Of a DNA stretch of 64,000 nucleotides, positions 24,986-48,567 are shown one piece after another; position 1 is the stretch's first letter; every line of letters begins with the position of its first letter. Source of the DNA: Roseiflexus sp. RS-1 (GTDB lineage: Bacteria > Chloroflexota > Chloroflexia > Chloroflexales > Roseiflexaceae); contig NC_009523.1 in the NCBI RefSeq assembly GCF_000016665.1, positions 2,108,001 through 2,172,000 of the forward strand. Direction: 5' to 3'. The translations under genes were made by a program, and so were the position numbers. The notes under the pieces are model-generated. The model saw nothing but the letters and a program-made list of their open reading frames with translations, did no database searches and was not told the origin of the DNA.

Positions 24986-25111
24986 GGGGATCTGCGCGAA
25001 GGAAATTCAAGTCTGCGCGAAAACTTCAGAAAAAAGATGGATGCCATCTGCCGGATCAATCGGTAGAATAGTCATGACGCGCGCAAATCCGTGTCATTCA
25101 AGGGCATAAAG

Positions 25112-27832
25112 ATGAGCCAGAGCCACTATTATGGCGCCCGCTGGGTTCGTGCCGATTTTCACTTGCATTCGCCTGGTGCGTACTCCTTTCGTTTTCCCGA
25201 CGGTCTTTCTCAAAAGGATCGCAATGAACTGATCCGTCGCTACGTGGATCAGTTACAGGCGCAAGGCATCGAAATCGCCGCAATCACCGATTATCAGCAC
25301 GTTCGGGTGGAGTGGTTCGTTCCCATTCGGGACGCAGCGGCACACAAAGGGATTTACATCTATCCCGGCGTGGAACTCTCGTTTGGCGGGGGAGTGGCGG
25401 GGAAGCATGGCTTGCATGTGCTGGCTATCTTCCCCTACCAGGCCAATCCGGAGTCCATCAACCGCGCTATTGACAAACTGCTAGACGATGATACCACCGA
25501 ATTACTCCTGGACGATGGCAGACACCGCGACCTGAAGCCGCAAGCGCCGATCCGGGAGTGTTTGCCCAGATTGCGCCAGGAGCAGGATTGTCTGTTCATC
25601 TTTGCCCATCCTCACGATAGTCATGGTCTCTTCAAAACCTATAGCCCGGTCGAAGCAGCAGACGTGCTCAGATCCCTGTCACCGGAGGCCATCGAATCGT
25701 TCGACGAGGACGACCGTCAGCGCCTGCACAGCACCGGCAAGGTGACGTTGGAATATCTGCGAACGATCGCCGGGATCGAGAATAGTGACAACCATAGCAT
25801 TGCAGAGATTGGCACAAAAGCGCACGATGGTCGGCTGCGCCGCACATACCTTAAGCTCAGCGCCCCGGACGACCTGCGCGCTATTCGCCTGGCGCTGCGC
25901 GATAACGCCCTGCTGGTGCGTGTGGGTGATCCGCCTGCGCCAGACTATACCCGTCTCCTGCGTCTGACCGTCGAAGGGAGCGGCTTCCTGGGCGGCGTGG
26001 ATCTGACGTTCAGCCCTGAACTCAACGTACTGGTCGGTGGACGTGGTGTGGGCAAGTCGGCTATTCTGGAGACAGTGCGGTTTGTGCTGGACCTGGAAGC
26101 CTTTTCCCCTACCGAATATCGGGAAAGGCTGGTGGAGCATGCCCTGGGCAGCGGGGGCAAAGCCATCCTGACCCTGTGCCAGGCGGTTCGTCCTGGCGTA
26201 GAACGAGAATTTCGGATCGAGCGCGTGTTGGGCGAAGCGCCGCGCGTTTTTGAAGGCGAACGGGCAGTGCAACTTTTACCGCGCGAAGTCCTGGGAGAAC
26301 GCGAAATCCCGCTCTTCTTCGGTCAGCGTGAGATGTACGAGGTCACTCAGGTGCCTGCGTTGCGTCGTCGCCTGTTGGATGCGATCATTGGCCGCGAATC
26401 CGATCAACAACGACGCCAGGTCAAAAAACTCGAAGAGGAAGCGCGGCGCAATATGCGCGCCATCCTGGAGCGTCAGGAACGGCTGGCGCAACGGGAGGAC
26501 CTGGAAAAGCGCTGGCAGGAAATCGAACATCAGGTGGCGCTCTATCGGCAGTACGGCATTGCGCAAAAATTGCAGGAGGCCACGGCGCTGACCCGCGATG
26601 CGGAGCGGCTCAGGCAAGCCCGCGAGCAGTTTGATCAGGCGCGAAGTGACTGGCACGAGTTCCGGCAACGTCTGTCTGAACGATGGGCGAGCGCTCTATC
26701 GAGGTTAGGGCAGGCCGGGAGCGCGCAGGCAGCCCTGCTTCAGGAAGCCGCCAGGTTGGTGCGCCACCTGCGAGAGACGCTTGACGGCTCCCTGCAACAG
26801 GGTGAAACAAGCCTTCAGCAGGCGCTGACCGAGTTTGACCGCTTGCTGGAACGCTGGGAGCAGGAACGACGGCCGCTCGATGAAGCAATCCAGCGTCTCA
26901 AGCAGGAACTGGGAATGCAATTGCCAGACCCTGATGTTCTCATCCGTCTGACACAGGAGCAGGAGACCCTCCGCCCTCAGCTGGATCTGCTCAGGCGAGA
27001 GGAGGCAGCCATCGTCGCGTTGCAGCAAGAGCGGCGGCAGAAACTGGGCGACCTGCGCGAACAGCGTCGGCAGGTGTTCCAGTTGCGGCAGAAGCAAGCC
27101 GAAGCTATCTCGCAGGCGCTCAGGGACCGCGTGACCGTCCAGGTGAAGTGCCGAAGTCAGCGCAAAGACTTCGCCGAAGCGCTGATCGCTTTCTTCAGCG
27201 GCTCCGGGCTGGATAAGGAAACCTTGCATCGGGTGGCCGAGAGAGCGACGGACGGCTTGGAGCTGGCTGAATGGATTCGGCAGGGCGAAGAGAGCCTGGT
27301 CAACGAAGCCAACCTAACCCTCTCCCGCGCCCGGCAGATGATCCGCTTTGTCGAACAGAGTCCGCCGAGAATCTACGACCTGGAACTGCTGACGCCAGAA
27401 GATGAAGTCGAAGTCGCACTCAGGGTGAATGAAACGTGGCTCCCGCTCGAGAAACTCTCAGCCGGGCAGCGGGCTGCCGCTATGCTGCTCATCCTGCTCA
27501 CCCGGCACGATCGTCTCCTGCTGGCAGACCAGCCGGAAGACGATCTGGACAATCGTTTCATCTTCGATGATGTGGTACCGCTCCTGCGCGAGCAAAAGGG
27601 GCGGCGCCAGATTATCGTCGCCACGCACAATCCGAACATCCCTGTTCTGGGTCACGCTGAGTTGGTCGTGGCTCTGGAAGCCCGTGATGACCGGGCATCC
27701 CCACGGGTGCAGGGCGCGATTGATCGCCACGACGTGCAGGACATTGTTCGCAACATCATGGAGGGCGGCGATGAGGCGTTCCGGCGACGTGCCGAAAAGT
27801 ACGGGGTAAACCTGGAGGGCGGGAGGACGTAA
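25112..27832 (+). CDS. PHP-domain plus SMC-like ATPase (TrlF-type)
   Basis: 906 residues. The N-terminal PHP phosphoesterase (about 1-250) has intact metal motifs: FHLHS (His17, His19), ITDYQH, GVELSF, FAHPHDSHG and ENSDNHS. An SMC/RecF-like ATPase follows: Walker A GGRGVGKSAILE (Lys315), a coiled-coil insert of about 300 residues rich in Glu, Arg and Gln (about 420-720), then the ABC signature LSAGQRAAAMLLILL and Walker B LLLADQPEDDLDNRF. This PHP-SMC fusion matches what I know as the TrlF-like family. ATG at 25112 has AAGGG 8 nt upstream; a GTG at 25091 is possible. It is 2 nt from the next gene, so the two form an operon. Nucleic-acid cleavage gated by ATP is inferred. Confidence 0.85.
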   Translation: MSQSHYYGARWVRADFHLHSPGAYSFRFPDGLSQKDRNELIRRYVDQLQAQGIEIAAITDYQHVRVEWFVPIRDAAAHKGIYIYPGVELSFGGGVAGKHGLHVLAIFPYQANPESINRAIDKLLDDDTTELLLDDGRHRDLKPQAPIRECLPRLRQEQDCLFIFAHPHDSHGLFKTYSPVEAADVLRSLSPEAIESFDEDDRQRLHSTGKVTLEYLRTIAGIENSDNHSIAEIGTKAHDGRLRRTYLKLSAPDDLRAIRLALRDNALLVRVGDPPAPDYTRLLRLTVEGSGFLGGVDLTFSPELNVLVGGRGVGKSAILETVRFVLDLEAFSPTEYRERLVEHALGSGGKAILTLCQAVRPGVEREFRIERVLGEAPRVFEGERAVQLLPREVLGEREIPLFFGQREMYEVTQVPALRRRLLDAIIGRESDQQRRQVKKLEEEARRNMRAILERQERLAQREDLEKRWQEIEHQVALYRQYGIAQKLQEATALTRDAERLRQAREQFDQARSDWHEFRQRLSERWASALSRLGQAGSAQAALLQEAARLVRHLRETLDGSLQQGETSLQQALTEFDRLLERWEQERRPLDEAIQRLKQELGMQLPDPDVLIRLTQEQETLRPQLDLLRREEAAIVALQQERRQKLGDLREQRRQVFQLRQKQAEAISQALRDRVTVQVKCRSQRKDFAEALIAFFSGSGLDKETLHRVAERATDGLELAEWIRQGEESLVNEANLTLSRARQMIRFVEQSPPRIYDLELLTPEDEVEVALRVNETWLPLEKLSAGQRAAAMLLILLTRHDRLLLADQPEDDLDNRFIFDDVVPLLREQKGRRQIIVATHNPNIPVLGHAELVVALEARDDRASPRVQGAIDRHDVQDIVRNIMEGGDEAFRRRAEKYGVNLEGGRT

Positions 27833-27834
27833 GT

Positions 27835-29025
27835 ATGGATATGTGGGAACTCCAACGGCGGATTGCGCGCTGGGAAGATATACATACTGAGTTCAAAGAG
27901 CAGGATGTCCATACCGATGACATTGCTGCGGCGTTGGTGGCTTTTGCCAACACCGATGGCGGACAGTTGATCTTCGGCATCAATCAAAACCGGGCCATTA
28001 TCGGCGTTGATGACCCTGATCGCCTGATGCAGCGCGTTGATCAGATTGCCTGGAACAACTGCGAGCCGCCGCTCACCGTCCTGCAAGAAACCATTCGCAG
28101 CGAGGAAGGCCGCGTCGTGGTGGTTGTCAACATCCCTAAAGGGGATCAGCGCCCCTATCGTACCATCAGAGGCGACTACTTCATACGCACCACCTCGGGA
28201 CGCCGACGGGCTTCCCGGCAAGAACTGCTCCGCCTGTTTCAATCGACGGAGAGTCTCTATTACGATGAGACCGTGGTCTGGCGCGCCACGTTACGCGATC
28301 TGGACGAACAGCGTTTTGCCGATTTCTTCCGGCGGTCCTATAACCGCGAGATCACGTCAGAGCAAGAAACAGAGCGCCTGATGAAAAACATGCGCTTGCT
28401 GGAAGAACGTGAGGGCGCATGGCGTCCCACACTGGCGGGCCTGCTCTGCTTCGGACGAGAGCCGCAGCGATTTCTGCCGTATGCGCAGATCAGCGCTGCC
28501 CGCATCCCCGGTGAGACGCTGGCGCTGGCGCCTTCCGATGCCAGGACGATCGGCGGCACGTTGTTCGACATGCTGGAAGATGCCGCCCGCTTTCTGCGGA
28601 TTCATCTGCGCCGCCCGCACGTCATCCAGGGATTTGAGCCTGAAGAACGCCCGGAGATCCCCGAAGAAGCCTTGCGCGAGTTGCTGGTCAACGCGCTGGT
28701 GCATCGCGATTACACCGTCACTTCTCCGATTCGCGTCTTGATCTTCGATGATCGCATCGAAATCCGCACACCGGGCAACCTGCCCAACACAGTTACGATC
28801 GAGGCAATTCTTCTGGGCGCTGCGCATGTTTTGCGCAATCCCATCATCTACACCATGTTCAGTCGCGCCGGACTGGTCACTCACCTCGGCAGCGGCGTGT
28901 TGCGCGCCAGACAACTCATTGAGCAGGACGCGCGCGCCACACTGCGCCTGGAAGTTGTGGCGAACGAGTTCGTGGTTTCTGTTTCCCGTCCCGAAATGTG
29001 GCATGGACCGGGCGGACAGCAATAG
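27835..29025 (+). CDS. AlbA_2/Schlafen-like ATP-binding protein (RecG-related)
   Basis: 396 residues. The N-terminal AlbA_2 domain begins at about 15 with HTEFKEQDVHTDDIAAALVAFANTDGG and QLIFGINQN, the Schlafen-AAA-like signature. After a middle region, a C-terminal GHKL-like segment has PEEALRELLVNALVHRDYTV, FDDRIEIRTPGNLP and GSGVLRAR, the pattern annotated as HATPase_c_4 in many regulators. Proteins of this class are often called ATP-dependent helicase-like regulators and are common in mobile and defence contexts. The ATG lies 2 nt after the PHP-SMC stop with GGGAGGACG ahead. Joint function with that protein is inferred from the operon. Confidence 0.82.
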   Translation: MDMWELQRRIARWEDIHTEFKEQDVHTDDIAAALVAFANTDGGQLIFGINQNRAIIGVDDPDRLMQRVDQIAWNNCEPPLTVLQETIRSEEGRVVVVVNIPKGDQRPYRTIRGDYFIRTTSGRRRASRQELLRLFQSTESLYYDETVVWRATLRDLDEQRFADFFRRSYNREITSEQETERLMKNMRLLEEREGAWRPTLAGLLCFGREPQRFLPYAQISAARIPGETLALAPSDARTIGGTLFDMLEDAARFLRIHLRRPHVIQGFEPEERPEIPEEALRELLVNALVHRDYTVTSPIRVLIFDDRIEIRTPGNLPNTVTIEAILLGAAHVLRNPIIYTMFSRAGLVTHLGSGVLRARQLIEQDARATLRLEVVANEFVVSVSRPEMWHGPGGQQ

Positions 29026-29079
29026 GACAGCCCGGAACCCGCCTGGCACCAATCCCGTACCATCCCTGCAATAACGGAG

Positions 29080-29645
29080 AACCACGCGCCCCCTGGGTGC
29101 GCGGGCGTCCCGCCCGCATACGCGCAATCCTGCGCGTGCCAGGAGCGCGGGCGTCTCGCCCGCATACGCGCAATCCTGAGCGTCCCTGGGTGCGCGGGCG
29201 TCCCCGCCCGCATACGCGCAATCCTGAGCGTCCCTGGGTGCGCGGGCGTCTCGCCCGCATACGCGCAATCCTGAGCGTCCCTGGGGGCGCGGGCGTCCCG
29301 AACCGAGAACCAAGAACCAGGAACCGAGAACCACATGCCCCCTGGGTGCGCGGGCGTCCCCGCCCGCATACGCGCAATCCTGAGCGTCCCTGGGTGCGCG
29401 GGCGTCCCGAACCGAGAACCAGGAACCAGGAACCGAGAACCACATGCATCCTGGGTGCGCGGGCGTCCCGCCCGCATACGCGCAATCCTGCGCGTCCCTG
29501 GGTGCGCGGGCGTCCCGAACCGAGAACCAGGAACCAGGAACCGAGAACCACATGCATCCTGGGTGCGCGGGCGTCCCGAACCGAGAACCAGGAACCAGGA
29601 ACCGAGAACCACATGCATCCTGGGTGCGCGGGCCGTCCCGCCCGC
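29080..29645. repeat. Array of family B and family C repeats
   Basis: About ten copies of a unit reading GGTGCGCGGGCGTC then CCGCCCGCATACGCGCAATC and CTGAGCGTCCCT. It is built on the palindrome CGGGCGTCCCGCCCG. Four blocks of heptameric units (GAACCAG, GAACCGA) are interleaved, at about 29299-29334, 29409-29443, 29517-29551 and 29578-29612. Open frames through this array are all low-complexity, so I call no gene between 29026 and 29993. Confidence 0.9.
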
Positions 29646-29699
29646 ATGCGGAGACTGCGGGCTGATGGAGATTGAGCACTCAATCCGGTATGCGCTTTT

Positions 29700-29915
29700 G
29701 CTGTGGGGCTGATGGAGGTTGAGAAATAAATCCGCTATACGCCTCTTGCCGTCGGGCTAAAGCCCTCGGCTAGGCAAGGCGAAGCCCGCCTGCGCGGGCT
29801 GTAGCGGATTATTTACTCAAAGACCATAAGCCCTCGCTGAGCACGTGGAAGCCCCTGCGGGGCTACGGCGGAGAGTGTCCCTGGGTGCGCGGGCGTCCCG
29901 CCCGCATGTGTGCAG
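29700..29915. repeat. Family A repeats upstream of the NACHT gene
   Basis: Stem-loop units with GTCGGGCTAAAGCCCTCGGC, AAGCCCGCCTGCGCGGGCT and GCCCCTGCGGGGCT, in the orientation opposite to most other copies, plus one B unit at about 29880-29910. The NACHT gene begins about 80 bp later; a TAGTAT at 29945-29950 could be its -10, but no good -35 is seen. Confidence 0.8.
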
Positions 29916-29993
29916 CCCCAGCGTTTAAAGTTCTGCCTTTGCTGTAGTATCATGACCGTCAACGAGAGCCAGGCGCAAGCGTGCTGAGCGACG

Positions 29994-32900
29994 ATGATCC
30001 CACCGGAACTGCACCAGGCCCTGCAACGACTGCACGACGGAACCGATACCCCTGCCGATCTTGAGGCAGTGCGGGCTGCATTGCAGACGCGCCTGATTAC
30101 GCTGGCGCCCGCCACCCGCACGGTGACGGTCGGCGGCAACTCCGAGGGCACGGTCATCGTGACCGGCGATGGCAACACCGTCCAGGTGTTGCACGGCGCT
30201 GCCGCTGAAAAATTACGCCAGATCGAGATCGATGATCTCACCGAACGCTACCTGCGCGCCGTCGCCGACGACTGGCAGTACCTGACCATCACCACGCGCG
30301 GCGACGATCGCCGGTTGCCGCTGGAGGGGGTCTTTTTCATGCTCCAGGCTCGTCCGCGCCCGCAACCGCGGCCAACCGACCCGCCATTGCCGGACATCGA
30401 ATCGACGGAGCAGCGGCTGGCGGATGCGGGAGACCTCGATCCACGCGATATGCTTCGCACCGCCGATCAGGAGAATGACCGGCTTTCAGGCGCCCCCAAA
30501 ACCGCCGAGCCGCCCCCACCCGTGCCGCTTGATACGGTGATGCAGACCGACGAGCACCTGGCGATCCTGGGTGAACCGGGCGCTGGCAAGTCAACCGCGC
30601 TGCAATTCATCGGTCTGTGTTACGCCCGCGCTGCTACGAGTCAGGCGGTTGAACAGTTGACGATCAAGCGCCCTGCCATTCCCATCCTGCTGCGCTTGCA
30701 GGTCAGCGCGTCTACCATTGTCCGATCCACGCTTCGCACTGCCCTGCGCGCCGAGATTCAAAGCAGGTTGCAGTGTCAGGATGAGGACGCCAACCGACTG
30801 TTCGACGCCTGGCGCCAGTCGCCCGGTCTGATCATCCTGCTCGATGGGCTGGACGAGGTGCCGGCGGAGGTGCGCCAGTTGGTGCGTGAGCGGATCGAGC
30901 GGGCCGCCCGCAGCGGGATCGGTCGGGTCATCCTGACCTCGCGCCCGGCCGGGTTTCTCACCCTGGGCGGGTTGCAGGAATACACGCTCAAACCCTTCGC
31001 AGATACCAGGCAGGAAGCGTTGCCCTACCTGAAGGGATGGCTGCGGGCGCTGAAGCCCGAATGGCAGGCGCAGGTTGAGGAGAAAGCACAATCCCTGATC
31101 GAGCAGATGCAGGCAAGCGCCGCCCTGCGCCGCCTGCTCAACAACCCGCTGCTGCTGCGCCTGAGCGCCCAGCACTACGCCGCAACCGGCGCGATCGCCC
31201 GCAGTCGCGCCGACCTGTACCGGCAGTGGGTGGAGGAAGCCTGGCAGCGCGCCCGGCAGCGTGGCGCAGCGGAGCAGGACAAACAACAGTATCTGGCGGC
31301 ACTGCAAGCGCTGGCATGGCACATGCACACCGGCGGCGACAGCAGTGCAACCGCTCTGCAAGCCGCGCTACGCAACGCGGGCCTGGCCCCCAATGACCAT
31401 GCCGCTGCTGACCTGCTACACCGCCTGCGCGAACAGACCGGGCTGCTAGCGCGGCTGAGCGAGGTGGACAGCGACCGCTACCTCTTCATCTTCAGTCACC
31501 TGACCCTGCGCGAATACCTGGTCGCTACCCGCCTGTACAACGCCTGGCAGCAGAACGCACGCCGCACCTGGCGCTTCCTGAACCTGCGGTTGCATCTGAC
31601 TGAATGGCGCGAACCGCTCGCGCTGCTGGCAGGGTTGCTCGACGAAGCCGACGCCGGACACCTGCTGACCTGGATCGTGCGTGCTCGCTCGCCGGAGGAA
31701 CAGTATCTGCACCGCGACCTGCTGCTGGCGGCTGAGCTGGCGATTGAGAGTGGGTATGCGCAGGTGATAGGAGTGATGCTGGTACCGCGATTGCTGCAGG
31801 TGCTGCGTGGTCGGCAGGTAGGGTATAGCGTGCGCGAGTCGGCAGTGGAAGCATTGGGACGGATCGGCGATGCAGAAGCCGTGCCGGGGCTGCTGGAAGC
31901 GCTGCACGATGCGGATGCAGATGTACGCTGGGCGGCTGCGGCAGCGTTGGAGCGGATCGGGGATGCGGCCGCCGTGCCGGGGCTGCTGGAAGCGCTGCAC
32001 GATGCGGATGCAGATGTACGCTGGGCGGCTGCGGCAGCGTTGGAGCGGATCGGGGATGCGGCCGCCGTGCCGGGGCTACTGGCAGCGCTGCGCGATGCGA
32101 ATGCGGGTGTGCGCCGAGCAGCGGCGGAAATGTTGGGGCAGATCGGGGATGCGGCGGCAGTGCCAGGGCTGCTGCACGCGCTGCGCGATGCAGAGGCGAG
32201 GGTGCGCAAAGCGGCGGCGAAGGCGTTGGGGCAGATCGGGGATGCAACAGCCGTGCCGGGGCTGCTGCACGCGCTGGGCGACACAGCGTGGTTGGTGCGC
32301 GCAGCGGCTGCGGAAGCGTTGGGGCGGATCGGTGCTCCAGCTGTGCCGGGGCTGCTGCAAGCGCTGGGCAACGCGAATGCGAATGTACGCCAGGCGGCGG
32401 CGGAAGCGTTGGGGCAGATCGGCGATGCAACAGCCGTGCCGGGGCTGCTGCACGCGCTGGGCGACGCGAATGCGGATGTACGCAAGGAGGCAGCACGGGC
32501 GTTGGGGCAGATCGGCGATGCAGCAGTGGCGCTGGGGCTGCTGGCAGCGCTGCGCGATGCGGAATGGTCGGTGCGCCGGGCGGCGGCGGCGGCGTTGAAG
32601 CAGATCGGCACACCAGCCGTGCCGGGGCTGCTGGCAGCGCTGGGCGATGCGAATGCGGACGTGCGCCGGGCGGCAGCGTGGGCGTTGGGGCAGATCGGTA
32701 ATGCGGCAGCCGTGCCGGGGCTGCTGGCAGCGCTGGGCGATGCGGATGCGGACGTGCGCCAGGCGGCGGCGGCGGCGTTGGGAGAGATCGGCGATGCGGC
32801 TGCCGTGCCGGGGCTGCTGGCAGCGCTGGGCGATGCGGATGCGGACGTGCGCCGGGCGGCGGCGGCGTTGGGAGAGATCGGCGATGCGGCTGCCGTGCCG

Positions 32901-34310
32901 GGGCTGCTGGCAGCGCTGGGCGATGCGGATGAGGACGTGCGCGAAGCGGCGGCGGCGGCGTTGGGACAGATTGGCGATGCGGCTGCCGTGCCGGGGCTGC
33001 TGGCAGCGCTGCGCGATGCGTATGGGTGGGTGCGCTGGGCGGCGGCTAAGGCGTTGGGGGAGATCGGCGCACCAGCCGTGCCGGGGCTGCTGGCAGCGCT
33101 GGGCGATGCGGATGCGGACGTGCGCCGGGCGGCGGCGTGGGCGTTGGGGCAGATCGGCGATGCAACAGCCGTGCCGGGGCTGCTGCACGCGCTGGGCGAC
33201 GCGAATGCGGATGTACGCAAGGAGGCAGCACGGGCGTTGGGGCAGATCGGCGATGCAGCAGTGGCGCTGGGGCTGCTGCAAGCACTGCGCGATGCGGATG
33301 CAGATACGTGCCGGATGGTGGCGCGGGCGTTGGGGCAAATCGGTGACAAAGCAGCCGTACCGGGGCTGCTGCGGGCGCTGCGCGATGCGCGTGTGGGAGT
33401 GCGCGCAGCAGCGGCAGCGGCGTTGGGGCAGATCGGCGATGTGGCAGCCGTGCCGGGGCTGCTGCAAGCACTGCGCGATGCGGATGCAGATACGTGCCGG
33501 ATGGTGGCGCGGGCGTTGGGGCAAATCGGTGACAAAGTAGCGGTGCCGGGGCTGCTGCGCGCGCTGTGCGATGCGCGTGTGGGGGTACGCGTAGCAGCGG
33601 CGGAGGCGTTGGGGCAGATTGGTGATGCGGCAGCCGTGCCGGGGTTGCTGGCAGCGCTGCGCGATGCGGATAAGTTAGTGCGCGAGACGACGGCGGCGGC
33701 GTTGGGGCGGATTGGCGCACCGGCAGTGCCGGGGCTGCTGCGCGCGCTGGTCGACGATGATGCGGATGTGCGCGAGTCGGCGGCGAAGGCATTAGGGCAA
33801 ATTGGCACTCCAGCCGTGCCAGGTCTGCTGCACGCGCTGGGCGACACAGCGTGGTGGGTGCGCGCAGTGGCGGCGGCGGCGTTGCGAAACCTGCTCCCGA
33901 ATGCTCCTCCGCACGACCGCAAGGAACGCCGTGTCTGGCAGGAGGCAATGGCTGCGATGCAGCGCACAGCCCTGCAACGAGGCGAATACGATCTCCTCAC
34001 CGCTATCCTGGAGCGACGGGCGGCCTGGCAGGCGGCGCTCGATCCATGGCAAGACCCGCTGCAACCACTGCCGGTACCCGTCTGGCAGCGATGGGTGCTG
34101 CGGATCGGTCGGGGCGGGCTGGTGGTGCTGCTGGCGGGTCTGGTCGGGGTAGTGACGGTGGCGCTGGCCGGTGTCGGTGATGCGGTGATGGCGGCGGTGT
34201 TGCCCGTCCTTCAGGTGCAGCCGTGGTGGGTGTCTGTCGGGCTGGTGTTTGGGCTGGGGGCGCTGGCGACGCTGCTGGGCTGGCTGGTGGATGCAGTGCG
34301 CAAAGCGTAG
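29994..34310 (+). CDS. NACHT-type STAND NTPase with HEAT repeats and membrane tail
   Basis: 1438 residues. Residues 1-70 are a small helical region followed by VTVGGNSEGTVIVTGDGNTV, a segment that resembles N-terminal adaptor regions of bacterial STAND proteins. The NTPase has Walker A LGEPGAGKSTALQFIGL (about 190), Walker B GLIILLDGLDEVP, sensor VILTSRPAG, and NNPLLLRLSAQHYA, typical of NACHT. A helical region ends in FSHLTLREYLVA. Residues 613-1288 are HEAT/PBS-lyase-type repeats. Two hydrophobic segments (about 1365-1430) form a membrane tail. Such proteins sense ligands and oligomerise; many bacterial ones block phages. The ribosome site is weak. No separate effector gene is adjacent. Confidence 0.82.
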   Translation: MIPPELHQALQRLHDGTDTPADLEAVRAALQTRLITLAPATRTVTVGGNSEGTVIVTGDGNTVQVLHGAAAEKLRQIEIDDLTERYLRAVADDWQYLTITTRGDDRRLPLEGVFFMLQARPRPQPRPTDPPLPDIESTEQRLADAGDLDPRDMLRTADQENDRLSGAPKTAEPPPPVPLDTVMQTDEHLAILGEPGAGKSTALQFIGLCYARAATSQAVEQLTIKRPAIPILLRLQVSASTIVRSTLRTALRAEIQSRLQCQDEDANRLFDAWRQSPGLIILLDGLDEVPAEVRQLVRERIERAARSGIGRVILTSRPAGFLTLGGLQEYTLKPFADTRQEALPYLKGWLRALKPEWQAQVEEKAQSLIEQMQASAALRRLLNNPLLLRLSAQHYAATGAIARSRADLYRQWVEEAWQRARQRGAAEQDKQQYLAALQALAWHMHTGGDSSATALQAALRNAGLAPNDHAAADLLHRLREQTGLLARLSEVDSDRYLFIFSHLTLREYLVATRLYNAWQQNARRTWRFLNLRLHLTEWREPLALLAGLLDEADAGHLLTWIVRARSPEEQYLHRDLLLAAELAIESGYAQVIGVMLVPRLLQVLRGRQVGYSVRESAVEALGRIGDAEAVPGLLEALHDADADVRWAAAAALERIGDAAAVPGLLEALHDADADVRWAAAAALERIGDAAAVPGLLAALRDANAGVRRAAAEMLGQIGDAAAVPGLLHALRDAEARVRKAAAKALGQIGDATAVPGLLHALGDTAWLVRAAAAEALGRIGAPAVPGLLQALGNANANVRQAAAEALGQIGDATAVPGLLHALGDANADVRKEAARALGQIGDAAVALGLLAALRDAEWSVRRAAAAALKQIGTPAVPGLLAALGDANADVRRAAAWALGQIGNAAAVPGLLAALGDADADVRQAAAAALGEIGDAAAVPGLLAALGDADADVRRAAAALGEIGDAAAVPGLLAALGDADEDVREAAAAALGQIGDAAAVPGLLAALRDAYGWVRWAAAKALGEIGAPAVPGLLAALGDADADVRRAAAWALGQIGDATAVPGLLHALGDANADVRKEAARALGQIGDAAVALGLLQALRDADADTCRMVARALGQIGDKAAVPGLLRALRDARVGVRAAAAAALGQIGDVAAVPGLLQALRDADADTCRMVARALGQIGDKVAVPGLLRALCDARVGVRVAAAEALGQIGDAAAVPGLLAALRDADKLVRETTAAALGRIGAPAVPGLLRALVDDDADVRESAAKALGQIGTPAVPGLLHALGDTAWWVRAVAAAALRNLLPNAPPHDRKERRVWQEAMAAMQRTALQRGEYDLLTAILERRAAWQAALDPWQDPLQPLPVPVWQRWVLRIGRGGLVVLLAGLVGVVTVALAGVGDAVMAAVLPVLQVQPWWVSVGLVFGLGALATLLGWLVDAVRKA
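31830..33857 (+). repeat. 22 tandem HEAT-repeat units (90 or 93 bp each)
   Basis: I count 16 units of 31 residues and 6 of 30 residues, total 676, matching the span exactly. Consensus is VRxAAAxALGQIGDAAAVPGLL-AL-DA-AD. Longer exact DNA duplications are present: 138 nt at 32406-32543 equals 33141-33278, and 83 nt at 33269-33351 equals 33455-33537. The array therefore grew by block duplication. Confidence 0.95.
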
Positions 34311-34395
34311 CCGTGGCGATGGTCAACGTGGCTAAGCGATGCTGTCATAATCCTTGTGCATCGGATGGTCTCACGCGGAGTAACTGTGTTGCTTG

Positions 34396-35358
34396 TCAAG
34401 GGGCGCTCGTATGCACAGCCGGATCCCAGGGCTTTTGCTGACGCAATATTGCGCCGAGAATAGTCAGCAGCTTGCGCATCGCAGCGACGATGGCGACCTT
34501 GCGCGGCTTGCCAGCTTGACACAGGCGCTGATCGAAGGCGCGCCTGACCAGACGGCGCCGCGTGGCCGCCAGGGTCGCCATGTACAACACGCTGCGCACA
34601 TCCCTCCTGCCGCCGGAGATATGCCGGGGTTTGTGCTGTGCGCCGCTCTGATTGGCATACGGCGCAACGCCCACAACGGCCGCCGCTTCCGTGCGCTTGA
34701 TGGTCCCCAGTTCGGGCAGGCGGAGCAGCAGGTTCAGTGCGGTGATCGCGCCGATGCCGGGCACGCTGTCGCGCAGCTCCCGTTTCCGGCGCACCTCGTC
34801 GGTGCGCTCCGCCTCGTTGTCGCGTTCCTGCTCAAGCGCACGGATCTCCTGATCCAGCCAATCAATATGCTTCTGGATGCCCGGGCGGAGGTTCGGCGCG
34901 GCAGCCGTCAACCGATTGATCTCAGCCGTCCGCATCTGAATCACCTGCTCCCGCCGGACCAGCAGGTCGCGCAAGGATGCGCGCTGCTCGTCCGTCGCTT
35001 GGTGGTGCGGCGGGCGCACCCGTTCGGCAAAGCGGGCGAGCAACCGGGCATCCAGGCGGTCGGTCTTCGCCTGGCGTCCTTCCGCGTGCGCCAGGGCGCG
35101 CACGCGGCGTGGCTGCACCCGCGCCGTCGGCAAGCCAGCCTGGAGCAGTTGGGCGAACACCATGCGCTCCAGCCCGCCGGTCGCCTCCAGCACAATCAGG
35201 GTCGGCTGCAGGCGCTGGAGTCGCGTGACCAGGAGCTGGACACCTTCGTCGGTAGACGGTATCGTCTCGCGTGGCGCGTGCGGGTCGGCGCCAAACGCCA
35301 CATCCAGCGTCTGTTTGGAGACATCAATGCCGATAAAGAGCGACTCACGGGAAGCCAT
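34396..35358 (-). CDS. IS110 family transposase
   Basis: 320 residues, typical length. The N-terminal RuvC-like DEDD domain shows FIGIDVSKQTLDVAF (first Asp), VLEATGGLERMVFAQLL (Glu) and KTDRLDARLLARF (Asp pair). The C-terminal Tnp_20 domain has VPGIGAITALNLLL and VGVAPYANQSG with the catalytic Ser region near HISGGRRDVRSVLYMATLAA. These enzymes recombine DNA guided by a structured RNA made from the element's own end. ATG at 35358 has AGGAGG 8 nt upstream. The frame is intact, so the element may be active. Confidence 0.92.
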   Translation of the reverse strand: MASRESLFIGIDVSKQTLDVAFGADPHAPRETIPSTDEGVQLLVTRLQRLQPTLIVLEATGGLERMVFAQLLQAGLPTARVQPRRVRALAHAEGRQAKTDRLDARLLARFAERVRPPHHQATDEQRASLRDLLVRREQVIQMRTAEINRLTAAAPNLRPGIQKHIDWLDQEIRALEQERDNEAERTDEVRRKRELRDSVPGIGAITALNLLLRLPELGTIKRTEAAAVVGVAPYANQSGAQHKPRHISGGRRDVRSVLYMATLAATRRRLVRRAFDQRLCQAGKPRKVAIVAAMRKLLTILGAILRQQKPWDPAVHTSAP

Positions 35359-35530
35359 ACACAGAACCTCCTGAGGAAAACGGCGCCAGCCTTGCTAGCA
35401 TATGCGGGTTTGAGGGCCCAGATAACTGTTCGGCTTGGTCGCGTTGAAGGACACGGCTACCCAACACTCCGCGGCGATCTCGTGAACCTGGCGCAGAACG
35501 GTATACCGTGTCCCGTTAGATTATACTAGG
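35359..35530 (-). ncRNA. Candidate bridge RNA region upstream of the IS110 transposase
   Basis: About 170 nt of non-coding leader on the transposase strand. In the IS110 subgroup the bridge RNA is encoded just 5' of the transposase, at about this length. GGGACACGGTATACCG near the outer end and local GC stems fit a structured RNA, but I could not fold it or identify target- and donor-binding loops. Inference from family, not directly seen. Confidence 0.35.
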
Positions 35531-35649
35531 CGCGGAGACGCGGAGGGGTGGAGCGCAGTTCTCGCAAAGGCTGGACATATTGGACAGGGTTGACACTCCT
35601 CGGACGACCGCAATCACCATTGCGCTTCCCACACAGCGACCGAAATGAT

Positions 35650-36180
35650 GGTCTTTGAATAAATAATCCGGTATAGCCCGCGCAGGCGGGCTTCGCCTTG
35701 CATAGCCGAGGTTCAGCCCGACGGCGCGCCGTCGCCCTGAAGGGCTCGGCTACCAGGACGAAGGCCGCTGACGCGGCCTGCTGGCAAGCCCGCGCAGGCG
35801 GGCTTCGCCTTGGCTAGCCGAGGGCTTCAGCCCCACGGCTAGCGCAGTATAGCGGATTTAATTTTCAATCTCCATCAGCCCGACGGCGTGCCGTCGCCCT
35901 GAAGGGCTCGGCTAGCAGGACGAAGGCCGCTGACGCGGCCTGCTGGCAAGCCCGCGCAGGGGGGCTTCGCCTTGCATAGCCGAGGGCTTCAGCTCCACGG
36001 CTAGCGCGGGATAGCGGAATAAATTCTCAATCTCCATCAGCCCGCCGTCGCCGCACGCGGGCGGGGACGCCCGCGCACCCAGGGACGCACGTGGTTCTCG
36101 GTTCCTGGTTCTCGGTTCTTGGTTCCTGGTTCCTGGTTCTCGGTTCTTGGTTCTCGGTTCGGGACGCCCGCGCACCCAGA
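35650..36180. repeat. Dense family A, B and C repeats
   Basis: Several family A modules: GCCCGCGCAGGCGGGCTTCG, TAGCCGAGGGCTTCAGCCC, and a linker reading AGCGGATTTAATTTTCAATC, in places with CTCCATCAGCCCGACGGC. A 100-bp stretch is duplicated nearly exactly (about 35710-35800 and 35880-35970). Family B follows at about 36058-36085 and heptamers of the GGTTCTC/GGTTCCT type at 36090-36160. No gene seen in 35541-36344. Confidence 0.85.
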
Positions 36181-36344
36181 GACTTCAGCCCGCAGTCTCC
36201 TGGCGCGACGATCCCGCGCTGCGGTATAATCTGCCCGTGTTGGCAGGACGACGTGCATCTCCGTGTGACGTGACCGCCAGCAATCACGACCAAACAATGT
36301 TGCCGGGATGGGGCGCTTCCCATCCCCCCGATGGAGATGTTTCC

Positions 36345-43279: not shown

Positions 43280-43351
43280 CGGGAAACTCCTTTCTGCTTC
43301 TTTGCACGATTTGCCACTTGTCTGGTTGCGTCTTGTGATGGGGACATGGGT

Positions 43352-43360
43352 ATTATATCA
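43352..43360 (-). promoter_or_regulatory. Extended -10 promoter of the PfpI gene
   Basis: TGATATAAT on the minus strand, a perfect extended -10 about 70 nt upstream of the start codon. Confidence 0.5.
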
Positions 43361-43470
43361 AAATCTGGCGGAACGATGTGGATGGGAGGCGCTCCAACCA
43401 CGTGTGCGCCACCCGTAAGGAGATGCCGGGTTCCGTGAACGAACCGTCGAGAGTTGATGTGACAATGAGC

Positions 43471-43512
43471 CGATCCCACCCCCGGAGCGGTGGTGCTCTG
43501 GAAGTGGGATCG
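43471..43512 (-). terminator. Inverted repeat after the beta-helix gene, possible terminator
   Basis: CGATCCCAC (43471-43479) pairs with GTGGGATCG (43504-43512), with an inner GAGC/GCTC stem. It lies 50 bp past the stop of the beta-helix gene. No clear T-run follows, so termination is only inferred. Confidence 0.4.
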
Positions 43513-43560
43513 TGAGCGGCAACTCAGCCGGGTAGCGAGGGTTGGCGTTGTCGATGACGG

Positions 43561-46500
43561 TTACGGCGTATTGCCGCCGCCGAAATCATCGAACCTGGCG
43601 TTTGCCGTCTGATGATACCAGACACCAATCCGACCGCCGCGGTTGACGAAGAAGCTGCTCGTTGAAGTCGCGCCGATGAGCACCCCGTTCTTGTACACCC
43701 GCACCGAACCATCGGCAAGGGCGCGCGCCCCAAGGGTATCGCCGTTGGCGAAGGCAACAGGAATGGTGACACGGGTTGTCCAGCTCTGGCCGGGTTGGAT
43801 GCTCTCAACCACGACCTGCTGATTGACTGCATCATACGAGACGAGGATCATCCCTTTCGCATAATTGTTCGTGGCCTGCGCCTTCAGGATGAGCGTATGA
43901 TGCTTACCCTGCGGATCGATAGTTGCCAGTTGCACACAGGCCGTCTGATCGGCGCCAAACGTGCGCGGCGCCCGGTTCCAGAAGATCGTTCCTGCGGTGG
44001 TGAAGGGTTGCACCTGGTTGCTCAGGATGCGGTAGGTGCTGGTTGCGCCTGTCCAGTTACTCCCAAGCCCCTTCGTTGTGTTCGCCCGATTGAAGTTGTC
44101 GAGCAACGGGCAGACCAGCGCTGGACCGACGTAGGTGTTCTGTACTGTCGCCTGAGCGGTTTGCTGCGGTGCGACGATAGCCGGTGAGCCGGTAATGTTG
44201 ACGACCCAGTCACTTCCCGGCGCCTCACTCACCGTGTAGCTGCCCGGTACGAGCGGTCCAAACGTCAGCGAACCACCGCTTGTGCTCTGGCAGAAGGGGG
44301 TGGGGTAGGATGGACCGCTGATGCAGATGTTGAAGGTTGTTCCAGGGATGGGTGTCACCCCTTGCCAGTTGACCGTCTTTGTGACCTGCAACATGCCTGG
44401 ACTCAGCGTGTTCGTGACCGTCGCGTTCGCCGGTTGCGTGTCAGAAACACTCACCGTGCCAGGAAGCGTGACGCTCCACGCCGGACCGGGATCGGTCTCG
44501 GTGACGATATAGTCACCGGACTGCAAATTGTTCCACGTCACAGCGCCGCCGCTGGTCGTCTGACAGTTTCCTGATGGATACGACGGACCGGTGATGCAGA
44601 TCTCGAAGGTCTGGCCCGCAGCCGGCGGAGCGCCGTTCCAGTTGACGACTTTGGTAACGGTCAGATCGCCCAGTCCATCGCAGTTGGTTGTAACATCGGG
44701 CTGGAAACCAACCGCCGGATCGGTATCCGCGCCATTGCACAGCCAGGGTGTAAAATCGGTATTGCCAGCAGCCGTATCGGCGCCGGTGCTATTCGGACCG
44801 GTAGCAGCGCCCCACCAGTTCAACTCGCTGTTGCTGGTGAAGTCGTCGGTGTCACTGACCAGACCGTTGTCGTTGGCGGTAATACTGTTGAGCTGTACGG
44901 TAGCATTGACGAAGTCGCTGCTTGTGCAGTAACCTTTCCCGGTGCATTGATACAGCACTACGCCGTATTCCCAGTTTCGCACATAATTGTTCGTCGCCGT
45001 AAAATCGAGATTCATGGGTCCAAAGCCGCCATCGGCTTCGATGCCGACGCCGCCTGCTGATCCATCACTATCGAGTTCATTGTTGATAACCAGAATGGTC
45101 TTGACGTTGGTGGCAGCAGTGCTGTTCATTGCGGCAGATGCCGCATTTGGAACGGTGATGGACAGCGGGTTGCTGCTCTTCCCGAACGGCGAAGGTAATC
45201 GACCGGGGGGCGGATCATCGGCAATGATGCCCCAGAAACCGGGTGAGCCGGTGCCAGTTGCGGTGGCAAAGATCAGGTTGCCGTTGTGCGTGCCACTGCC
45301 ATTAATGTGGTAGATACCCACCTGATTCTGGTTGATCGTGTTCCCTTCGGTATCGGCATTCGCATCATAGATGAGGACACCGGTAGAAACATAGGTAAAG
45401 GGGGTGTACGAATGACCGTTGATCGTGTTACCCTTTACTGTTGCCGTAGCGCCGAAGCTTACCTGCACACCGTTTTGGGCGATGAAGTTCACCGCACCCG
45501 CGCCGGTGACGGTGTTGCTCTCTATCAGCGCATTCGATCCCGTGCCGCTGATGGTGATGCCGTTCTTTTGGTAACCAAAGACAGTGTTGTTCTGGATGGT
45601 AGCGGTTCCACTGGTCGTTGAGCTTCCGACAAGAATGCCGATCCCATTCTGACAGCCGCTGATCGGGTTATCACGGATATCGCGGATAACGTTGTCGTGG
45701 ATGAAGGCGTCTGCGCCATCACGCACGAAGATGCCCGCCCTGATGGTGCCGCAGCCGCCTGGTCCAGGACCGGTGATGGTAAAGCCGGTCACCTCAACAT
45801 CGATGCCTGATCCTGAAATCTTGACAATTGTCGAGTCGGGGTTGGAAGCGGGCGGAATGCTCGTCGGCGCCTGAATGAAGGTGGCGGATGCGCCGCTTTC
45901 ACCAACCAGTTGCAACGTCTTGGTGATCACCACCTGCTCGACATAGGTTGCTGCCTTGACCAGAACGGTATCGGTCGGTTGCGCGTTATCGACCTCATTC
46001 TGGATCACGGCGCCGATCCGTTTGGTATTTGGGAAGGTATATCCAGCCGTATATGTGTAACTTCGCACATCGAATGGAGGATAACTTCCCACCAGTGCGA
46101 CAACCGCCTTGTCGTAGGTATTGGCAGACCAGTAGCTCGTCCAGTCGAACTCACCGGCGATGACGGTTCCGCGCGAGCGAATGTACTGTGTAGAGCCGCT
46201 GAAGGTATTGCCTTGAATGATCGCGCCACCAACCGGATGGACGAACCACGGAACGGTTGTTCCCGAACCGGTCAGGCTGATAGCGGGATTCGTTGAACCG
46301 TTCATTGTGAAGGTATTATTGCGGATAATACGGTTGCTTACCGAGCCGCCAACACCCGTCCCATTGTTGATCGAAATCAGCCCACCCAGATCGAACCAGT
46401 TTTCTTCGATCAGGTACGACTGAATATGAGCGATATTGTTGACGGTGTCGTACCGCCAGTCGCCGAAATACACGGCGCCGAAGCCCGGAGCGGTTACCTT

Positions 46501-47715
46501 CAAATGGACATCGCGCAGGGTAAAGTCATCGCCGATCACTTCGATCGTCTTGTTGTTGCCTGGCGTGTTCGGACCGATGCGCAACCCCTGAATCGTGACA
46601 TTGTCGCCTTCAACAAAAATGCCGCTGTAGCCAAACGTATTCGTAGCGTTGGTGTTGACGGTGGCAAGAACGGCTGTTGCATCGGTGATCGGGGCATCGC
46701 TCGCACTAACGCCCATGATCGTCACACCGTTTTTCGCAATGAACAGACCGAACTGGTGTGGACCATTGCTGCCGAGAACAAAGCGATTCGTAGCCACCTC
46801 GTTATACGTGCCGGGGAGCACACGTACCTGACCGCCGGGCTGGACGGCATCGATAGCAGCCTGAATGGTTTTCTTTGCAGAGGTCAGCGTCTGACCGCTG
46901 TTGGCGTCATTGCCGTTAACCGCATCGACATAACAAACCGTTGTGCACTGATCGACCTCAAAATTGGCGTGCACCTCATCGCTGCCCCACTGCAACGTCA
47001 CATTATCGACGAAGCCGCGGAATATGGCGCCCCAGCCGGAGCCGACGCCGACATTCACGCCGAAAACGAGCGACAGGTTATCAATATTGATCGGCGGCGG
47101 ATCACCCGGTTGACCGACCGGCGAACCGGTGATCCAGTCGTTCAACGTGGCATTATAGTTTTGTACAACCCCGCTCGGAATGGATTGCCCTGAAGGGACG
47201 AACATCCAGAACTTTCCGTTCAGAATGTTCTGCGTGATCCACTGATCGGTCGGTATCGGGGCTGCCCCATTGTAAACAGGCTCCCAGATGAGGAGCGCAT
47301 ACTTCCCGAAGGTCGACGATGATGGGTTGGCGTCAACCACGTACAGGCGGAGGACTGGCGCGAGATGGTTTGCTGTTGTACTGCTGCTGGCGCGGTAGTA
47401 CTCATAGCTGAGCGCAGTCAGTCCCGCCAGTGTGCGGCCAGAAAAATTGGCGGGATTCCAGATCTTCTCGTAATCGGCCTTGTCCTGACCAGGAGTAATG
47501 GTATTGGTGGTAAACTCCAGCGAGCCGTTGCCCGAACGTGGTTGGGCAGTGGTAATGGCGACGGTGGCGTTGGCGCGCACATTGGCCGGCGCCCAACCGT
47601 CGGGTGCACTGGGAGTGACGACAACTGCAAACGCTGCGGTGGTGGTCAGAAAAAGTAGACAGATGATGCCAGCGAACGTCCACAGCAAGCGCTGGTATCG
47701 GCGACGAAGATTCAT
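43561..47715 (-). CDS. Large secreted parallel beta-helix protein
   Basis: 1384 residues with a Sec signal peptide (basic MNLRRRYQR, hydrophobic 11-27, cleavage after AFA about 29). A lectin-like region leads into [20 protein letters not shown], the start marker of a DUF1565/beta-helix domain, and repeats such as [47 protein letters not shown] (about 280-1000). Two domains like prealbumin or SdrD-B folds follow ([20 protein letters not shown] and [20 protein letters not shown]), and a concanavalin-like C-terminal domain. No anchor or sorting tail seen, so secreted or sheath-bound. AGGAGGAGAGAGG precedes the ATG. Confidence 0.85.
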   Translation of the reverse strand: [1384 protein letters not shown]

Positions 47716-48250
47716 AGCCTCTCTCCTCCTGTCGTTTGTGCGAACTGTCGTCTCATGCGGTACACAGTGAGATTGCGTGGCCGACCGTGCTGGACGTGAT
47801 AACGTTGTGAGGGCGATATACGAACTTCGACGTCTCTGCGACTCACCTCCTTCAGAACAACACCCAAATCAGGACTCCGCCAGGTTGGTTTTCAGGCAGC
47901 GACGATGTGAAGCGACGTCGATAGATTTCCTGGTCGCCTCGCACGACAGAGGAGAGGGGCTGACTGAACAAACACAGAGATATGGATGATCGCCAGTCTG
48001 CCAAACCGTATTCGACTGTGCCGTGCGTTCCAGTTGGCAGTGGATGGGTGACGAATGATAATCAGCCTGCAACTGGCTGAATCTGACAAAAGAACTGTAC
48101 CCTGGTCTGGGTCGTAGAAGTTCGCTGATGTGCATCATTGTACCAGTATGTCCATAGATGAGTAAAGTGACAGTTTTTTCATAAAAAGGGTTATCTTAAT
48201 AATGATTTGATTGAGAAATGCCAGGATAGGCGCCTGTAATTGTCGTATTG
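47716..48250. other. Non-coding gap between beta-helix gene and repeat module
   Basis: About 530 bp with short frames of unlikely composition. It should hold the promoter of the beta-helix gene. The stretch 48150-48230 is unusually A/T rich (GTGACAGTTTTTTCATAAAA), unlike the rest of the window. No gene seen. Confidence 0.5.
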
Positions 48251-48430
48251 CTTAACATCTCCCGTTTCAGGCATCAGGACGCCCACATTCCCATCTCCCA
48301 TGCGTAGGAGATGTCTCATGGGGGTAGATTTTTTGAAAGCCCCTGCGTGCCATCTCCTGTTTCAGGCATCAGGACACTCATACTCCCCCTTCTCCACTTG
48401 TGGGAGAAGGGGGGTGGGGGGATGAGGGGC
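48250..48430. repeat. Family E composite repeat module
   Basis: Order: CATCTCCCGTTTCAGGCATC, then AGGACGCCC, a first hairpin (CATCTCCCATGCGTAGGAGATG region), GAAAGCCCCTGCGTGCCATC, a second copy of the opening words, then a hairpin CCCCCTTCTCC/GGAGAAGGGGG. The same order recurs at 59990-60166 and 61550-61585. Confidence 0.85.
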
Positions 48431-48567
48431 AGAAGAAAAAGGACGTCAGGGCGCCACAAACGCTCCTGGCAAAAGTGAGCCGTCTCACGTCCCGCGCGCC
48501 GGATGGAGCGCCGCTCTCCTACCCCACGTTCATCCCTTGCATATGCAATGTGCCGCTTTTGTAAACC

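What the first reader, a model, noticed from the sequence alone, without database searches (positions are those of the whole stretch)
25112..29025. Two-gene PHP-SMC plus AlbA_2 operon, a candidate conflict system
The first protein joins an intact PHP metal site to an SMC-like ABC ATPase with a long coiled coil; the second has a Schlafen-like AlbA_2 domain plus a GHKL-like tail. They are 2 nt apart. Each class turns up in mobile or defence settings. A nuclease gated by a DNA-end-sensing ATPase, with an AlbA_2 partner as regulator or co-effector, would be a plausible anti-invader module. That function is inferred.
Basis: partly seen in the sequence, partly recalled or inferred. Interest (0 to 1): 0.65.

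Follow-up and report, generated by a model that had tools for sequence, protein, structure and literature searches.

The report
TrlF–TrlG, a restriction-linked conflict cassette
Two adjacent genes in this heat-loving bacterium form a pair (TrlF and TrlG) known only as a growth-temperature brake in an insect pathogen, but across bacteria the same pair sits next to, and often inside, DNA-restriction operons, which makes it very probably a back-up anti-invader module rather than a thermometer.

Summary
The two genes are real and 2 nt apart. The first (25112-27832) belongs to NCBI's TrlF family: a PHP domain fused to a Rad50/SMC-type ATPase. The second (27835-29025) has the AlbA_2 + HATPase_c_4 layout of TrlG. 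The pair is therefore trlF-trlG, published only as the "temperature restricting locus" of Photorhabdus. It lies on an ~11.3-kb island absent from the same locus in four related genomes. In a sample of 83 TrlF loci (80 from a scan of 84,980 species), 72 have TrlG directly downstream, from Chloroflexota to archaea, and the two proteins co-diversify (Mantel r 0.94). Of 41 pairs with room on both sides, 17 directly adjoin type I, type III or HMA restriction/modification genes; 16 pairs overall lie between subunits of one such system, some beside prrC. That strongly supports the conflict-system reading. Corrections: the PHP site is not fully intact (TDH to TDY), no TrlG-linked TrlF sampled has the full canonical PHP ligand set, and published genetics points to TrlG as the growth-arresting partner. 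Most likely TrlF is the DNA-sensing ATPase and TrlG the effector of an RM-associated back-up response. The window's own copy has no restriction genes beside it. Phage protection is untested.

The parts
25112..27832 (+). trlF: PHP domain + Rad50/SMC-type ABC ATPase with coiled coil, 906 aa (P0001); an upstream GTG at 25091 is an alternative start
   Evidence: NCBIfam NF045780 454.6 bits, cut-off 350; AlphaFold2 model pLDDT 89.7; head Z about 22 to Rad50/SMC
25139..25927 (+). PHP domain of TrlF (residues about 10-272); ligand positions H17 H19 Y61 E88 H102 H166 D226 H228 (Y61 replaces the usual His)
   Evidence: alignment with Ppl and other PHP proteins; PHP-family profile hits in the PDB such as 2anu, 9etk, 7ug9
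26036..26059 (+). Walker A of TrlF, residues 309-316 (GGRGVGKS, K315)
   Evidence: G309, G312, G314, K315, S316 invariant in 55 aligned TrlFs
26393..27118 (+). coiled-coil arms of TrlF (residues 428-669)
   Evidence: secondary structure of the model
27458..27550 (+). ABC signature (S783-G-Q) to Walker B (D806QPEDDLD813) of TrlF
   Evidence: S783, G785, Q786, D806-E809, D811-D813 invariant
27814..27826 (+). purine-rich ribosome site for trlG inside the 3' end of trlF
   Evidence: sequence GGAGGGCGGGAGG, 8 nt before the trlG ATG
27835..29025 (+). trlG: AlbA_2 + middle domain + HATPase_c_4, 396 aa (P0002)
   Evidence: Pfam; model pLDDT 93.4; full-length match to 3lmm, Z 23.8 over 357 residues
27874..28212 (+). 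AlbA_2 domain of TrlG (residues 14-126); E14 and K21 invariant in the family, E19 and Q51 at the other two Schlafen catalytic positions
28723..28977 (+). HATPase_c_4 (GHKL) domain of TrlG (residues 297-381); with the N-box E282/N286 and HRD 290-292 just before it
24986..36330 (.). strain-specific island between yacL-like PIN/TRAM gene and a class-III aminotransferase gene: trlF, trlG, repeats, NACHT-HEAT gene, IS110
   Evidence: homology to same-genus and sister-genus genomes stops at about 24980 and resumes at about 36330
29994..34310 (+). island neighbour: NACHT/STAND-type ATPase with about 20 HEAT repeats; not shown to belong to the TrlFG system
   Evidence: Pfam; no relative of its N-terminal 590 aa in the loci of the eight closest TrlFG relatives

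Best explanation
The pair is a TrlF-TrlG cassette: a horizontally moving two-gene conflict module that most often accompanies restriction-modification systems. Proposed working: TrlF binds DNA through its Rad50/SMC-like ATPase and reads a sign of invasion (broken or processed DNA ends, a blocked restriction enzyme, or a changed nucleotide pool). TrlF then licenses TrlG. TrlG binds nucleic acid through AlbA_2, is gated by ATP through its GHKL domain, and stops growth of the invaded cell. Shown here or published: gene pairing, co-inheritance, island location, embedding in restriction operons, invariant ATPase motifs in TrlF, invariant GHKL and E14/K21 residues in TrlG, growth arrest needing TrlG in one organism. 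Inferred: the trigger, the physical TrlF-TrlG contact, the molecular target of TrlG, and protection against phage or plasmids.
For: 72 of 83 sampled TrlF loci have TrlG directly downstream (gaps -80 to +57, mostly -22, -19, -13 or +9); 4 of the 11 others end within 350 bp of TrlF. No TrlG-like gene among 333 control genes. Distance matrices of the two proteins correlate at r 0.94 (best of 2000 permutations 0.22), and 23 of 50 tree splits are shared against 0.18 expected. Of 41 pairs with at least 1.5 kb on both sides, 17 directly adjoin a type I, III or HMA gene on the same strand, against 2 of 333 control genes; 16 pairs lie between subunits of one system. Families identified by Pfam and PADLOC, including PrrC at 471 bits. 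Island absent from relatives. On conjugative plasmids it is cargo beside Tn7-like genes. In E. coli 38 of 5426 genomes carry it, and every row listed is annotated next to hsdR and hsdS. In Photorhabdus TRL is induced on up-shift and growth stops; mutations fall in TrlG, none in TrlF (PMC7554251). By target size alone 16 hits all in TrlG have probability 6e-9 (my count of independent hits from Table 1). AlbA_2 matches SLFN11/13/14 and the SAMD9 tRNase domain. Ppl, the nearest tested relative of TrlF, is an anti-phage exonuclease (PMC12904381). 'Schlafen + minimal histidine kinase' genes are reported linked to BREX and BREX-related loci (PMC12839542).
Against: The window's own copy has no restriction genes beside it. 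18 of 41 well-flanked pairs have none of the nine families within 9 kb. The nine neighbour families were chosen after seeing the data, and the controls are Chloroflexota only. TrlG's third Schlafen catalytic position is Q51 here, and only 19 of 60 TrlGs have the full acidic set, so RNase activity is doubtful. The probability of 6e-9 assumes equal mutability and independent hits; the paper itself allows that TrlF plays no role. No anti-phage assay of TrlFG was found in the papers held.
Confidence: 0.72

Rival explanations
1. Ppl-like: the PHP domain of TrlF is the effector nuclease, gated by the ATPase and NTP binding, and TrlG is an accessory regulator or RNA/DNA-binding cofactor.
For: TrlF aligns to the Ppl profile over residues 15-902 (209 bits). 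The window's PHP keeps 7 of the 8 ligand positions compared. Ppl is an ssDNA 3'-5' exonuclease released by NTP depletion and 3' ends (PMC12904381).
Against: None of 72 TrlG-linked TrlFs has the canonical ligand set, and one clade has lost both motif-I histidines (QxN), whereas 21 unpartnered relatives and Ppl keep all. The Ppl cut-off of 1000 bits is not reached.
Confidence: 0.2
2. Temperature or stress growth regulator: the operon serves to stop replication at unfavourable temperature, as proposed for Photorhabdus.
For: Published genetics and heat induction of TRL (PMC7554251).
Against: The pair occurs in this genome, whose size equals that of a hot-spring Roseiflexus from memory, and in thermophile-named lineages such as Hakubella thermalkaliphila and Thermoflexales. 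It sits inside restriction operons on plasmids and in E. coli. It is sporadic within genera.
Confidence: 0.06
3. Toxin-antitoxin-like pair: TrlG is a latent toxin and TrlF mainly its restraint; selection is for maintenance of the mobile element or operon rather than for defence.
For: Growth arrest depends on TrlG, and loss of TrlF was never selected, as expected if TrlF loss is itself harmful. Overlapping genes and mobile location.
Against: Some TrlFs of the same clade lack TrlG (L025, L026, L081, L100), so TrlF has a use of its own. Deep co-diversification inside restriction operons fits a working partnership better.
Confidence: 0.15

Closest known systems
trlR-trlF-trlG, Temperature Restricting Locus of Photorhabdus laumondii (PMC7554251)
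   Same: Same gene order and same domains: TrlG AlbA_2 14-128 and HATPase_c_4 298-365 against 14-126 and 297-381 here; TrlF is the family that NCBI names after it. The pair in Photorhabdus loci L048 and L068 was recovered by my scan.
   Different: No trlR-like regulator upstream here; different PHP motif variant (TDY/DxH against TNH/DxK); 28% TrlF identity; different genomic site; lives in a presumed thermophile.
Ppl (single-gene anti-phage PHP-ATPase; NF042955)
   Same: Full-length homology to TrlF: PHP domain followed by SMC-like ATPase.
   Different: Ppl acts alone and has the canonical PHP ligand set; TrlF here scores far below the Ppl cut-off, has Y61, and is paired with TrlG.
PrrC in EcoprrI and RloC (restriction-linked anticodon nucleases)
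   Same: ABC-type ATPase-based back-up effectors tied to restriction; PrrC is encoded inside a type I operon, as trlFG is in homologous loci, sometimes next to prrC itself.
   Different: TrlFG has two proteins, PHP and AlbA_2/GHKL instead of a HEPN-type nuclease, and also enters type III and HMA operons; substrate unknown.
Schlafen + minimal histidine kinase RNases linked to BREX and BREX-related systems (PMC12839542)
   Same: Same AlbA_2 + GHKL layout as TrlG and the same kind of neighbourhood (DUF1156/DUF499 systems).
   Different: That report describes the protein with a C-terminal wHTH, which P0002 lacks, and does not mention a PHP-ATPase partner (no hit for PHP, histidinol or TrlF in its main text).
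Lamassu / DdmABC and Wadjet (SMC-based defence)
   Same: SMC-like ATPase head and coiled coil used as DNA sensor with a separate effector.
   Different: No LmuA/LmuC, Jet or kleisin partners; only 47 bits to PADLOC LmuB.

Membership tests
TrlF family (NCBIfam NF045780) | Score over the curated cut-off along the whole protein | tested here: met
   454.6 bits against 350, residues 15-905
TRL operon (trlR-trlF-trlG) | trlF followed directly by trlG with AlbA_2 + HATPase_c_4 | tested here: met
   2-nt gap, Pfam domains at matching positions
TRL operon (trlR-trlF-trlG) | Small regulator trlR upstream in the same operon | tested here: not met
   The gene upstream of trlF is a PIN/TRAM (yacL-like) gene ending at 24985; no regulator ORF between
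Ppl | Score over the curated Ppl cut-off (1000 bits) | tested here: not met
   209.4 bits
Ppl | PHP followed by SMC-like ATPase | tested here: met
Ppl | Canonical PHP ligand set HxH, xDH, E, H, H, DxH | tested here: not met
   Y61 in place of His; Ppl itself has the set
Ppl | ssDNA 3'-5' exonuclease relieved by NTP depletion | not testable with these tools
   needs purified protein
Schlafen-type RNase (AlbA_2 catalytic triad E-E-D) | Acidic residue at all three catalytic positions | tested here: not met
   E14, E19, Q51 in the window; full set in 19 of 60 TrlGs; positions inferred from residue ranges of structure matches
Schlafen-type RNase (AlbA_2 catalytic triad E-E-D) | AlbA_2 fold | tested here: met
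   Pfam 70 bits; Z about 10-11 over about 106 residues to SLFN5/11/12/13/14 and 9.6 to the SAMD9 tRNase domain
RM-embedded back-up effector (PrrC-like) | Encoded within a restriction-modification operon | tested here: inconclusive
   Met in 16 homologous loci, not met at the window's own locus
RM-embedded back-up effector (PrrC-like) | Activated when the restriction enzyme is inhibited | not testable with these tools
   needs a phage or anti-restriction assay
Lamassu | LmuB-type SMC with LmuA effector | tested here: not met
   46.7 bits to LmuB and no LmuA-like partner

The most novel reading that the evidence does not exclude
TrlF-TrlG is an unrecognised two-gene anti-invader cassette, built to plug into type I, type III and HMA restriction operons as a back-up. 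Its PHP enzyme has been turned into a sensor or ligand-binding pseudo-enzyme, while the killing or arresting activity passed to an AlbA_2/GHKL partner. The 'temperature restriction' of Photorhabdus would then be accidental triggering of a defence module.
Probability: 0.4. Interest if true: 0.75.

Novelty: new variant of a known kind. Interest (0 to 1): 0.58.

Why it matters
Restriction operons are known to carry a few built-in back-ups such as PrrC. A second cassette found inside three unrelated kinds of restriction/modification operon, and across bacteria and archaea, would show that such modularity is general. It would also give a defence explanation for a published temperature phenotype. 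Close copies occur in E. coli inside type I restriction operons, so the idea can be tested at once with cloned genes in a laboratory strain.

Tried and rejected
A search for 'TrlF' returned mostly unrelated papers, with one relevant; 'PHP-SMC' and AlbA_2 + phage defense gave none. The 2020 classification of ABC ATPases, which may mention such pairs, is not held, nor are bioRxiv preprints, so prior description cannot be ruled out. The NACHT-HEAT neighbour as a third subunit: rejected, since no relative of its N-terminal 590 aa lies near the eight closest TrlFG relatives. Degenerate PHP as a strict mark of the TrlG partnership: rejected, since TrlG-less members of the TNH/DxK clade share it. RecG helicase, the automatic annotation of TrlG: rejected; it lacks helicase domains.
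Full report
What is in the window. Two + strand ORFs lie 2 nt apart at 25112-27832 and 27835-29025, and the ribosome site of the second overlaps the end of the first. The first protein passes the NCBIfam TrlF model (454.6 bits, cut-off 350), with weaker full-length similarity to the anti-phage protein Ppl (209 bits, cut-off 1000). Its model (pLDDT 89.7) has an N-terminal alpha/beta PHP domain, long helices at 428-669, and an ATPase head that matches Rad50, SMC and RecF at Z about 19-22. A profile of the PHP part finds PHP-family structures in the PDB. The second protein has AlbA_2 and HATPase_c_4 domains. Its model (pLDDT 93.4) matches 3lmm over the whole length (Z 23.8, 357 residues), Schlafen AlbA_2 domains (Z about 10-11) and the SAMD9 tRNase domain (9.6) at the N terminus, and SpoIIAB and histidine kinases (9-10) at the C terminus.

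The pair has a name. Photorhabdus laumondii carries trlR-trlF-trlG, the Temperature Restricting Locus; its TrlG has AlbA_2 at 14-128 and HATPase_c_4 at 298-365 (PMC7554251), essentially the positions found here. There the operon is induced on temperature up-shift and growth stops, and the mutations found in this operon in temperature-tolerant isolates were all in trlG. I count 16 independent trlG lesions from the paper's Table 1. If trlF were equally required, target size alone gives a probability of 6e-9 that none would fall in trlF. This assumes equal mutability. The authors drew the milder conclusion that TrlF is dispensable or compensated. I proposed no experiment in that organism.

Mobility. 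The window is part of a 5,801,598-bp genome; from memory that is the size of the hot-spring isolate Roseiflexus sp. RS-1, and this identification is mine, not a tool result. In four related genomes (three of the same genus, one sister genus) the yacL-like gene is followed at once by the aminotransferase gene that here lies at 36147. Homology stops at about 24980 and resumes at about 36330. So trlF, trlG, a repeat block, a NACHT-HEAT gene and an IS110 form an 11.3-kb insertion. TrlF is absent from all 11 other family members searched, and 6 of 151 sampled genomes of the phylum have it. The nearest relatives of TrlF (41-56% identity) are in Thermoflexales, Anaerolineae, Bacillota, Clostridium and Acetobacteraceae, which points to horizontal transfer.

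The two genes belong together. Of 83 TrlF loci (80 from the genome scan, the window, one other Chloroflexota genome and one IncC plasmid), 72 have a TrlG ORF directly downstream; 4 of the 11 others end within 350 bp of TrlF. No TrlG-like gene occurs among 333 control genes, and only 1 of 63 viral-contig loci with TrlF-like ATPases has one. Distances of the two proteins correlate at 0.94 (best permutation 0.22), and 23 of 50 tree splits are shared against 0.18 expected. Same-contig inheritance alone would give this, so it shows long co-inheritance, not contact. The same genome also has an 807-aa protein joining PHP and AlbA_2 (C1:1618266-1620689), a hint that the two domains work together.

The neighbourhood is restriction. 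Clustering neighbours of the pairs gave recurrent families, identified by Pfam and PADLOC as type III Mod and Res, type I HsdR, HsdM and HsdS, PrrC, and the HMA system HmaA, HmaB and HmaC. Of 41 pairs with at least 1.5 kb on both sides, 23 have one of these within 9 kb and 17 directly adjoin one on the same strand; among control genes the latter is 2 of 333. Sixteen pairs lie between subunits of one system: six type III (mod-trlF-trlG-res), five type I (four hsdR-trlF-trlG-hsdS-prrC-hsdM, one hsdM-hsdS-trlFG-hsdR) and five HMA. The IncC plasmid pNDM-KN shows the type I form next to Tn7-like transposition genes, and 38 of 5426 E. coli genomes carry that allele. Neighbours of pairs without these families include further PADLOC candidates such as LmuB, AbiU and HNH genes. 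Limits: neighbour families were picked from the same data, controls are all Chloroflexota, and the window's own pair has no restriction gene beside it.

Active sites. All aligned TrlFs keep the ATPase motifs. The PHP site is another matter: 0 of 72 TrlG-linked TrlFs has the canonical set (HxH, xDH, E, H, H, DxH), whereas 21 unpartnered relatives and Ppl have it. The main clade reads TNH and DxK, the HMA-rich clade QxN in motif I, and the window clade TDY. The window and L027 are the least altered, with only the TDY change. The pattern follows the tree, and some TrlG-less members of the TNH/DxK clade share it, so it is a correlation. In TrlG, E14, K21, E282, N286, H290 and R291 are invariant in 60 sequences. 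The second Schlafen position is Q in 34 of 60, and the third is acidic in about 60% and Q51 here; all three are acidic in 19 of 60. A classical Schlafen RNase is therefore doubtful for this copy, though AlbA_2 nucleic-acid binding is likely.

Mechanism. The best-supported model is a DNA-sensing TrlF ATPase that licenses or restrains TrlG, whose ATP-gated nucleic-acid-binding module arrests growth. It would act beside restriction systems as a back-up, as PrrC does in EcoprrI. That TrlG is needed for arrest is published for one organism. Trigger, target and phage protection are inferred. The Ppl-like alternative, with PHP as the effector nuclease, stays open for this copy because its site is nearly complete.

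Known and new. Known: the operon name, Ppl as an anti-phage PHP-ATPase (PMC12904381), and Schlafen-plus-kinase proteins near BREX and BREX-related loci (PMC12839542). That last paper gives no hit for PHP, histidinol or TrlF. I found no held paper that joins TrlF-TrlG to restriction operons or reads the temperature locus as a conflict module. The library lacks most subscription papers and all bioRxiv preprints, so novelty is provisional.

Noticed in passing
window 43300-48500: A second insertion absent from two same-genus genomes, GC as low as 0.55, with a 1384-aa ORF (43561-47715, minus strand) whose only Pfam hit is a SpaA/prealbumin-like domain.
   Followed up: partly
own genome C1:1618266-1620689 (L017:10267-12690): An 807-aa protein with a PHP domain (HxH, TDH, DAH motifs by eye) fused to AlbA_2, a possible one-gene counterpart of the TrlF-TrlG partnership.
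   Followed up: partly
window 29994-34310: NACHT/STAND-type ATPase with about 20 HEAT repeats and a hydrophobic C terminus in the same island; weak EAD10 similarity at its N terminus (below Pfam cut-off).
   Followed up: partly
window 29073-29640 and 35675-36200: Two blocks of GC-rich interspersed repeats (units of about 47 and 109 nt, and of 14, 112 and 162 nt) flank the NACHT gene and the IS110 copy within the island.
   Followed up: no
L025 7932-10553 and L026 7980-11618: Plasmid TrlFs of the TNH/DxK clade without TrlG; on the Serratia plasmid two small unknown ORFs follow instead, possible alternative partners.
   Followed up: no
L109-L114, L118-L122 (viral contigs): Virus-borne ATPases of about 630-650 aa that match TrlF only from residue 274 onward, that is, TrlF-like ATPases without the PHP domain.
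   Followed up: no
TrlG residue 19 and TrlF residues 59-61 across 60 loci: Q19 in TrlG goes with TNH in TrlF, while clades that lost the TrlF HxH motif keep acidic residues at TrlG 14/19; may be plain clade structure or a trade of catalytic roles.
   Followed up: partly
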